Both the position numbers and the translations under genes were made by a program. A DNA stretch of 64,000 nucleotides from NCBI RefSeq assembly GCF_001884135.1, contig NZ_MAOC01000007.1, forward strand, positions 186,001-250,000, in the 5' to 3' direction. This DNA comes from Bacillus nitratireducens. GTDB taxonomy: Bacteria > Bacillota > Bacilli > Bacillales > Bacillaceae_G. A model generated the notes under the pieces. It saw nothing but the letters and a program-made list of their open reading frames with translations, was not told where the DNA came from and made no database searches. Positions 50,073 through 51,467 of this stretch are shown here, one piece after another; position 1 is the stretch's first letter, and each line of letters opens with the position of its first letter.

Positions 50073-50225
50073 ATCATATCACCTCAAGGCAACAAACAAA
50101 ATTATAGCTAGCCATTTTATATTTGTCAATGTTTTTTCTTTACACTATAATGAAGTCATCATAGGAAATAATATATAGATTATCACGTTTTCCAAAAAGA
50201 TGCTACATCGAAAGGAGAGATTACC

Positions 50226-51467
50226 ATAAAAGCCAGTGGTATTGTTGTTGAATATAACCCTTTTCATAACGGTCATGCTTATCATGTGCAACAAACAAAA
50301 AAGTTAACACAGTCTGATATTATTATCGCCGTTATGAGTGGTCCTTTTTTGCAGCGTGGTGAGCCAGCACTCATCTCCAAATGGTATCGTACTAAAATGG
50401 CCTTAACAAACGGCGTAGACCTTATTGTAGAGCTTCCTTATGCATTTGCAACACAAAAGGCCGAAACTTTCGCAAATGGCGCAATTTCGATTTTAAACGC
50501 CCTTCATGTTTCTGAGATTTGTTTCGGTAGTGAAGATGGGGAAACTGGAAATTTCTACAATACCATCTCTGTACAAAAAAATGAAGAAGAGACTTTTAAT
50601 CGTCTTGTGAAGCAATTTATGAATGCGGGTAATAGTTATGCAAAAGCTACATCCGAAGCCTTTCAACACATCTTACCACCTGAAAAAAATGTAGATATGT
50701 CACAACCAAATAACATTTTAGGTTTACAGTACATTAAAGCTATCCTTTTACAAAATAGCTCCATGCAAGCACAAACCATAAAAAGATTCGCCTCTCATTA
50801 TCATGATGAAACATTTCACGATCAACATATTGCAAGTGCAACAAGTATCCGCAAACAACTATTTAATGAACACGGTTCATCTACAACTATTGAGCCTTTT
50901 ATCCCGAAAACAACTGCTTCTCTTTTAGAAAACTACAAGCAAAACTATGGGACGTTACATAACTGGGAAAAATACTTTTCATTTTTTAAATACAAACTTA
51001 TGACGATGTCTCCAGGGGACTTACAACATATATATGAAATTGAAGAGGGTTTAGAGCATCGTATTTTATCCAAAATACAAGACAGTTCATCTTTCTATTC
51101 ATTCATGGAAGCATTAAAAACAAAACGTTATACATGGACTAGATTACAAAGAGCTTGTACACATATTTTAACAAATACAACGAAGGAAGAAATATATAAA
51201 GCAAATATAGAACAGCACGCGCCGTATATCCGTCTACTCGGAATGTCACAAAAAGGACAAACTTATCTTTCTAAAAATAAGAAAAGAATAGAACTGCCAA
51301 TCCTTACACATACAAAAACATTCGAACACCCTACTTTAGACATAGAGCGAAAATCAAATGCTGTATATTTCTCCATAATGCAAGAACCTTTGCGGACACA
51401 CCTGCTAAAACAAGAAGCAACGCATCATCCAGTTCGTTATGATGAAACAACTAAAAAATTCCTATAA
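50226..51467 (+). CDS. tmcAL: tRNA(Met) cytidine acetate ligase TmcAL, apparent AUA start
   Basis: 413 residues if initiated at ATA 50226. Forms N4-acetylcytidine at the elongator tRNA-Met wobble base using acetate and ATP. The frame before the first usable GTG (50286) encodes IKASGIVVEYNPFHNGHAYH, the nucleotidyltransferase (HIGH-like) motif at the very N-terminus of the family. Between the upstream stop at 50169 and 50226 there is no ATG, GTG or TTG. AAAGGAGAG stands eight bases before ATA; ATT at 50220 is the other option but too close to it. Databases list, from memory, a 393-residue form from 50286 that lacks the motif. Confidence 0.88.
   Translation: MKASGIVVEYNPFHNGHAYHVQQTKKLTQSDIIIAVMSGPFLQRGEPALISKWYRTKMALTNGVDLIVELPYAFATQKAETFANGAISILNALHVSEICFGSEDGETGNFYNTISVQKNEEETFNRLVKQFMNAGNSYAKATSEAFQHILPPEKNVDMSQPNNILGLQYIKAILLQNSSMQAQTIKRFASHYHDETFHDQHIASATSIRKQLFNEHGSSTTIEPFIPKTTASLLENYKQNYGTLHNWEKYFSFFKYKLMTMSPGDLQHIYEIEEGLEHRILSKIQDSSSFYSFMEALKTKRYTWTRLQRACTHILTNTTKEEIYKANIEQHAPYIRLLGMSQKGQTYLSKNKKRIELPILTHTKTFEHPTLDIERKSNAVYFSIMQEPLRTHLLKQEATHHPVRYDETTKKFL

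What the first reader, a model, noticed from the sequence alone, without database searches (positions are those of the whole stretch)
50211..50290. tmcAL appears to start at AUA, with its catalytic motif missed by shorter models
The essential nucleotide-binding segment GIVVEYNPFHNGH lies upstream of the first GTG (50286). From the in-frame stop at 50169 to 50226 there is no ATG, GTG or TTG; ATA at 50226 is eight bases from AAAGGAGAG. A start from 50286 would yield an enzyme without its HIGH-like motif. AUA/AUU starts are rare (infC is the known AUU case) and respond to IF3, so acetylation of tRNA-Met could be tied to initiation fidelity. The target being the elongator tRNA-Met, whose ac4C prevents misreading of AUA, makes an AUA start especially intriguing.
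Basis: partly seen in the sequence, partly recalled or inferred. Interest (0 to 1): 0.7.

Follow-up and report, generated by a model that had tools for sequence, protein, structure and literature searches.

The report
tRNA-acetylating enzyme gene starting at AUA
A bacterial gene for an enzyme that helps the cell tell the AUG codon from the AUA codon appears to begin its own protein at a rare AUA start codon, which probably keeps the enzyme scarce and hides its true first 20 amino acids from ordinary gene finding; such weak starts are known for a few other genes.

Summary
The tmcAL frame is open from the stop at 50169 to 51467, its first ATG/GTG/TTG is 50286, and the motif GIVVEYNPFHNGH lies upstream of that. 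ATA 50226 sits 8 nt after GGAG of a strong Shine-Dalgarno, GAAAGGAG (-12.9 kcal/mol; GTG 50286 only -2.9). In 162 of 164 TmcAL loci read from more distant genomes, ATG, TTG or GTG stands exactly where the window has ATA; the other two have ATG one or two codons upstream. The only close relative found (L027, unnamed, 90% protein identity) keeps ATA and the ribosome-binding site, with no change in the first 28 codons although 136 of 413 codons differ. A sequencing error or private mutation is therefore unlikely. AUA is most probably the real start, acting as a throttle. AUA starts are already known in Firmicutes (infC, ccpN, citZ of S. aureus; ccpN and citZ reporters give 10-30% of AUG; PMC13009471, passages), so this is a new member of a known kind. 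IF3 control is plausible by precedent but untested. The AUA theme is probably coincidence. No named B. cereus-group genome was available, so spread within the group is open.

The parts
50123..50151 (+). sigma-A type promoter TTGTCA-17-TATAAT of tmcAL
   Evidence: consensus scan, 11 of 12 (the region's 7 promoter-like sites are no more than the 6.6 expected from shuffles, but only two reach 11 or 12 of 12)
50200..50229 (+). 9-codon upstream ORF (ATG 50200 .. TAA 50227-50229) whose stop overlaps the AUA start as AUAA; no SD of its own
   Evidence: read from sequence, identical in L027; SD pairing +0.7 kcal/mol; translation not shown
50210..50217 (+). Shine-Dalgarno GAAAGGAG, 8 contiguous pairs with the 16S tail
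50226..50228 (+). proposed AUA start codon of tmcAL
   Evidence: same column as ATG/TTG/GTG in 162 of 164 relatives; ATA also in L027
50226..51467 (+). tmcAL (ylbM), tRNA-Met cytidine acetate ligase, 413 aa from AUA
   Evidence: PF05636 1.6e-138, profile positions 2-391 of 402; NF010191; 5y0p 1e-127
50238..50276 (+). codons for GIVVEYNPFHNGH, the HIGH-like nucleotide-binding motif (role recalled)
   Evidence: translation; the motif was used to find the start column in the relatives
50286..50288 (+). GTG from which a canonical-only model starts (393 aa); weak SD pairing
51471..51495 (+). intrinsic-terminator-like hairpin after tmcAL

Best explanation
tmcAL in this lineage is transcribed from its own promoter and translated from AUA at 50226 by ordinary SD-directed initiation with fMet-tRNA (protein fMet-Lys-Ala-Ser-Gly-Ile-Val-Val-Glu-Tyr-Asn-Pro-Phe-His-Asn-Gly-His...). 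A strong 8-bp SD compensates for the weak third-position pairing of AUA with the CAU anticodon. The weak start lowers TmcAL output, by analogy to roughly a tenth to a third of an AUG start, and should make it depend on IF3 stringency. Shown here: position, reading frame, SD, homology of the start column, and conservation in one divergent relative. Inferred: actual initiation at AUA, reduced yield, IF3 dependence.
For: No canonical start upstream of the motif. ATA falls in the start column, occupied by ATG/TTG/GTG in 162 of 164 TmcAL loci and by the annotated start of the B. velezensis CDS. SD -12.9 kcal/mol, matched or exceeded in 11 of 135 relatives. L027 (1085 of 1239 bases identical) keeps ATA, the SD and 33 of 33 nearest leader bases, and shows 0 changes in codons 2-28, where 26 control pairs with at least 80% nucleotide identity show 1-12. 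L027 and the window differ by 93 synonymous and 43 non-synonymous codons, so the protein is under selection. Precedents for AUA starts with extended SDs: PMC13009471 (passages).
Against: No N-terminal peptide, ribosome profile or reporter. Only one close relative, unnamed. In 24 of the 26 control pairs codons 2-28 also change less than the rest, two control pairs have 33 of 33 identical leader bases too, and the pairs share loci (28 loci in all), so the zero is suggestive, not proof of RNA-level selection. The leader shows no unusual RNA fold (z 0.42 and 0.13). The in vitro IF3 study PMC10158994 left AUA with anticodon CAU out of its titrations, and weak third-base pairs there gave very low yields (passages).
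Confidence: 0.88

Rival explanations
1. The start is lost: the gene is decaying or silent in this lineage, and ATA is a mutated ATG or TTG that makes little or no enzyme.
For: The 164 more distant loci all have a canonical start at or within two codons of this column; tmcAL is dispensable in B. subtilis (a ylbM deletion strain is used in PMC4634966, passages).
Against: L027, 12.4% diverged in DNA, keeps the same ATA, SD and intact frame with more synonymous than non-synonymous changes. PF05636 matches from residue 2 in both.
Confidence: 0.05
2. Translation starts at GTG 50286 and gives a shortened 393-aa protein with another role.
For: It is what a canonical-only ORF finder returns, here and in L062.
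Against: SD pairing only -2.9 kcal/mol; it would remove residues 1-20 with the HNGH motif; codons 1-28 are the longest unchanged run of the gene between window and L027.
Confidence: 0.03
3. AUA is reached by termination-reinitiation: ribosomes translate the 9-codon ORF at 50200, stop at UAA 50227-50229, and restart at the overlapping AUA (AUAA, same geometry as AUGA).
For: Exact overlap, and the short ORF is identical in L027.
Against: Its ATG has no SD (+0.7 kcal/mol); with two sequences its conservation cannot be told from that of the whole leader; the internal SD suffices for direct initiation.
Confidence: 0.1
4. ATT 50220 or a frameshift from the short ORF provides the N-terminus.
For: ATT 50220 is in frame and near-cognate, SD pairing -8.9.
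Against: ATT starts only 2 nt after GGAG and would add two residues before the family's start column; no slippery sequence was seen by eye at the overlap.
Confidence: 0.02

Closest known systems
AUA/AUU start codons of S. aureus infC, ccpN, citZ and cvfC1 (PMC13009471, passages seen)
   Same: near-cognate start; for infC, ccpN and cvfC1 an extended SD; ccpN's non-canonical start is said to be shared with B. subtilis; reporters of ccpN, citZ and cvfC1 gave about 10% of AUG in poor medium, up to 30% for ccpN in rich medium
   Different: those were seen by ribosome profiling, here only by comparison. tmcAL is not named there: TmcAL, ylbM and cereus do not occur in the main text; supplements not seen
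infC autoregulation (ATT in E. coli, ATC in Streptomyces) and sigR GTC of Streptomyces (PMC5472188, passages seen)
   Same: rare start codon repressed by IF3 as a set-point device, misannotated in databases
   Different: the IF3 effect was tested for those genes, not here
TmcAL/YlbM of Bacillus (PDB 5y0n-5y0q, listed as UPF0348 protein B4417_3650; that it is the B. subtilis enzyme is recalled)
   Same: aligned over residues 2-413; same gene neighbourhood in B. velezensis
   Different: starts with ATG in B. velezensis (L144); Ser instead of Val at residue 4; AUA start here

Membership tests
TmcAL (tRNA-Met cytidine acetate ligase, PF05636 / NF010191) | full-length HIGH_NTase1 domain including the N-terminal part | tested here: met
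   from AUA: profile 2-391 of 402, 462.8 bits; from GTG 50286: 21-391, 411.2 bits; NF010191 515.7 against 465.7 bits, cut-off 360
TmcAL (tRNA-Met cytidine acetate ligase, PF05636 / NF010191) | EYNPFHNGH motif near the N-terminus | tested here: met
   only if translation starts upstream of 50286
TmcAL (tRNA-Met cytidine acetate ligase, PF05636 / NF010191) | ac4C34 formation on elongator tRNA-Met | not testable with these tools
   reported for B. subtilis (PMC7408541 passages; PMC12514573 passage)
genes with a near-cognate (ATA/ATT/ATC) start codon | no canonical start before the conserved N-terminus; near-cognate codon at SD spacing | tested here: met
genes with a near-cognate (ATA/ATT/ATC) start codon | non-canonical codon conserved in relatives | tested here: inconclusive
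   kept in the only close relative found, 1 of 1 (L027); absent from 164 of 164 more distant loci
genes with a near-cognate (ATA/ATT/ATC) start codon | initiation at that codon shown by experiment | not testable with these tools
   no proteomic or ribosome-profiling data available here
IF3-regulated genes (infC, sigR type) | output rises when IF3 stringency falls | not testable with these tools
   precedent only (PMC5472188 passages)

The most novel reading that the evidence does not exclude
The AUA start is a feedback sensor for TmcAL itself. If TmcAL is too abundant it also acetylates C34 of the initiator tRNA; ac4C34 excludes pairing with AUA but not AUG, so initiation would fall selectively at tmcAL's own AUA start (and at other AUA-start genes), while AUG genes are spared. 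Enzyme and start codon would form a closed homeostatic loop that only the codon AUA can give.
Probability: 0.04. Interest if true: 0.85.

Novelty: new member of a known kind. Interest (0 to 1): 0.45.

Why it matters
It corrects the N-terminus of a tRNA-modification enzyme: a model starting at the first canonical codon lacks its HIGH-like motif. It adds a comparative case for AUA starts, in an enzyme whose own job is the AUG/AUA distinction, so the question whether weak start codons set the dose of decoding-fidelity enzymes can be tested. It also shows a cheap way to find such starts: look for the family's start column occupied by a near-cognate codon.

Tried and rejected
Own-genome search: no whole genome is held for the window. 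More close copies: the genome-contig scan (26 relatives, best 52%), 398 class genomes (286 with a match, best 54%) and 299 order genomes (281 with a match at E <= 1e-100, best 56%) gave none; viral contigs gave one record, IMGVR_UViG_2547132164_000004 (L027 and L062 are the same record). The plasmid collection gave only TmcAL below 60% identity; DNA searches of phages and plasmids with the start region gave only Listeria and B. velezensis at 67-71%.

Regulatory RNA in the leader: no Rfam match there at gathering thresholds and no unusual folding; the hairpin UACCAU/GUGGUA that holds the AUA in its 5' arm is not beyond shuffles (z -0.34).

Phage origin of the L027 leader: considered because a phage-like integrase (named by eye, no family search) lies next to the promoter; the record holds one copy of the leader only and no phage record matched the integrase stretch in near mode. 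Not settled, since only one junction was found in the record.

Papers: eight searches ran;'s 105 papers I saw 12 listed. TmcAL with start codon: 16 hits, none of whose listed titles or abstract beginnings deals with the start of this gene; ATA start codon with Bacillus cereus: 0; AUA start codon with IF3: 1; non-canonical start codon, AUA, Bacillus, infC: 1; cytidine acetate ligase with Bacillus: 2. I found no report of a non-canonical tmcAL start; this rests on those searches only. Of the papers cited I saw passages, none in whole.

Full report
Observation. The tmcAL frame runs from 50172 to 51467 without a stop, preceded by TAA at 50169. The first ATG, GTG or TTG in it is GTG 50286, which would give 393 aa. 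The codons for GIVVEYNPFHNGH (50238-50276) lie before it. ATA at 50226 is preceded by GAAAGGAG (50210-50217), leaving 8 nt between GGAG and ATA. A promoter TTGTCA-17-TATAAT lies at 50123-50151 (11 of 12; promoter-like sites in the region, 7, do not exceed the 6.6 expected) and a terminator-like hairpin at 51471-51495. In a survey of window frames of at least 120 codons, four had a near-cognate codon with a strong SD upstream of the first canonical codon; in the other three an ATG follows one codon later.

Identity. From ATA the protein matches PF05636 HIGH_NTase1 over positions 2-391 of 402, NF010191 well above its cut-off, and the solved homologue 5y0p over residues 2-413. From GTG 50286 the match begins at profile position 21. 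The neighbourhood agrees with that of tmcAL in B. velezensis (DUF177 protein and rpmF on one side, SepM-type protease and patatin-like protein on the other; the window's own neighbours were named by eye). It is therefore an ordinary tmcAL gene with an unusual start. No call names the organism.

Start column in relatives. I read the codon eight positions before the E of EYNPFH in 164 loci: 26 from genome contigs, 29 + 80 from unnamed Bacilli genomes, 28, and one B. velezensis record. It is ATG in 118, TTG in 33, GTG in 11. The two exceptions (L126 GAG, L134 TTA) have ATG one and two codons upstream. None has ATA, ATT or ATC there. L070 was missed by the first motif (Tyr for Phe) and starts with ATG. 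Some loci are near-duplicates: four pairs share the first 60 nt, and genomes may occur in both collections. Of the 286 genomes with a match I read 110, the best-scoring ones (30 loci given by the tool, one of them the genome of L002, and 80 fetched); of the 281, the 28 new loci given. Two relatives at 54-55% identity (L165, L172) have nearly the same SD, gaaaggagag, before TTG.

Close relative. One viral-contig record (L027 = L062) carries tmcAL beside a prophage-like stretch: 370 of 413 residues and 1085 of 1239 bases identical, with 93 synonymous and 43 non-synonymous codon differences. ATA, the SD and the last 33 leader bases are identical (72 of 75 over the last 75), and the first 28 codons show no difference. 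Among 27 pairs of TmcAL loci with at least 80% nucleotide identity, drawn from 57 full genes, this is the only pair with no change in codons 2-28; the other 26 show 1-12. Against over-reading this: in 24 of those 26 pairs codons 2-28 change less than the rest, two of them also have 33 of 33 identical leader bases, and the 26 pairs come from only 28 loci. Scaled by the mean of the controls about 6 changed codons would be expected, so zero is low but the naive probability of 9e-6 overstates the case. The data fit selection on the translation start, local recombination, or both.

Mechanism. Shown: anatomy, homology and conservation in one relative. Inferred: initiation at AUA by initiator tRNA with C.A at the third position, held by the SD; lower output; IF3 dependence. 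In S. aureus, ribosome profiling shows initiation at AUA of infC and ccpN, with extended SDs; ccpN and citZ (AUA) and cvfC1 (AUU) gave about 10% of AUG in poor medium, up to 30% for ccpN in rich medium (PMC13009471, passages). IF3 represses a GTC start in Streptomyces sigR (PMC5472188, passages) and in vitro favours stronger third-base pairs, though that study left AUA with anticodon CAU out of its titrations and found very low yields for weak pairs (PMC10158994, passages). A low dose of TmcAL could matter: in B. subtilis a ylbM deletion changes expression of 222 genes, and ylbM is among the genes whose suppressor alleles go with raised (p)ppGpp (PMC4634966, passages).

Why the AUA theme is probably coincidence. 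TmcAL acetylates C34 of elongator tRNA-Met and so blocks AUA misreading (PMC12514573, passage), but initiation uses another tRNA. Given a near-cognate start in a Firmicute, AUA is a common choice (3 of 4 in PMC13009471). The reading that keeps the theme, acetylation of initiator tRNA by excess TmcAL shutting off its own AUA start, is not excluded and is given as the novel case at 4%.

Verdict. The start at AUA is well supported, the regulatory story plausible but untested, the kind known. Interest 0.45.

Noticed in passing
L062:9547-11371: In this relative a prophage-like stretch (integrase-like ORF 9547-10650 and HNH-like ORF 10675-11187, both named by eye) ends directly beside the tmcAL promoter; the -35 region differs from the window's TTGTCA while -10 and leader are kept, so integration may retune tmcAL transcription.
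   Followed up: partly
window 50101-50151: Two divergent promoter matches (TTGACA-17-TATAAT on -, 12 of 12; TTGTCA-17-TATAAT on +, 11 of 12) overlap in five of their six -35 bases between tmcAL and the gene on the other strand, so the two may compete.
   Followed up: no
window 50200-50229: A 9-codon ORF whose UAA overlaps the AUA start (AUAA); identical in L027, without an SD of its own.
   Followed up: partly
window 20825-21049, 15136-15250, 56042-56158 (all -): Rfam matches: T-box leader, PyrR binding site, ylbH leader.
   Followed up: no
window 1628-3487: Pieces 92% identical to a Bacillus paramobilis plasmid stretch annotated with a WXG100 protein, amidase and phage holin.
   Followed up: no
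L001-L172 (164 loci read): TmcAL often uses weaker canonical starts: TTG in 33 and GTG in 11 of 164, which may mean that low expression is favoured family-wide; no genome-wide baseline was computed.
   Followed up: no
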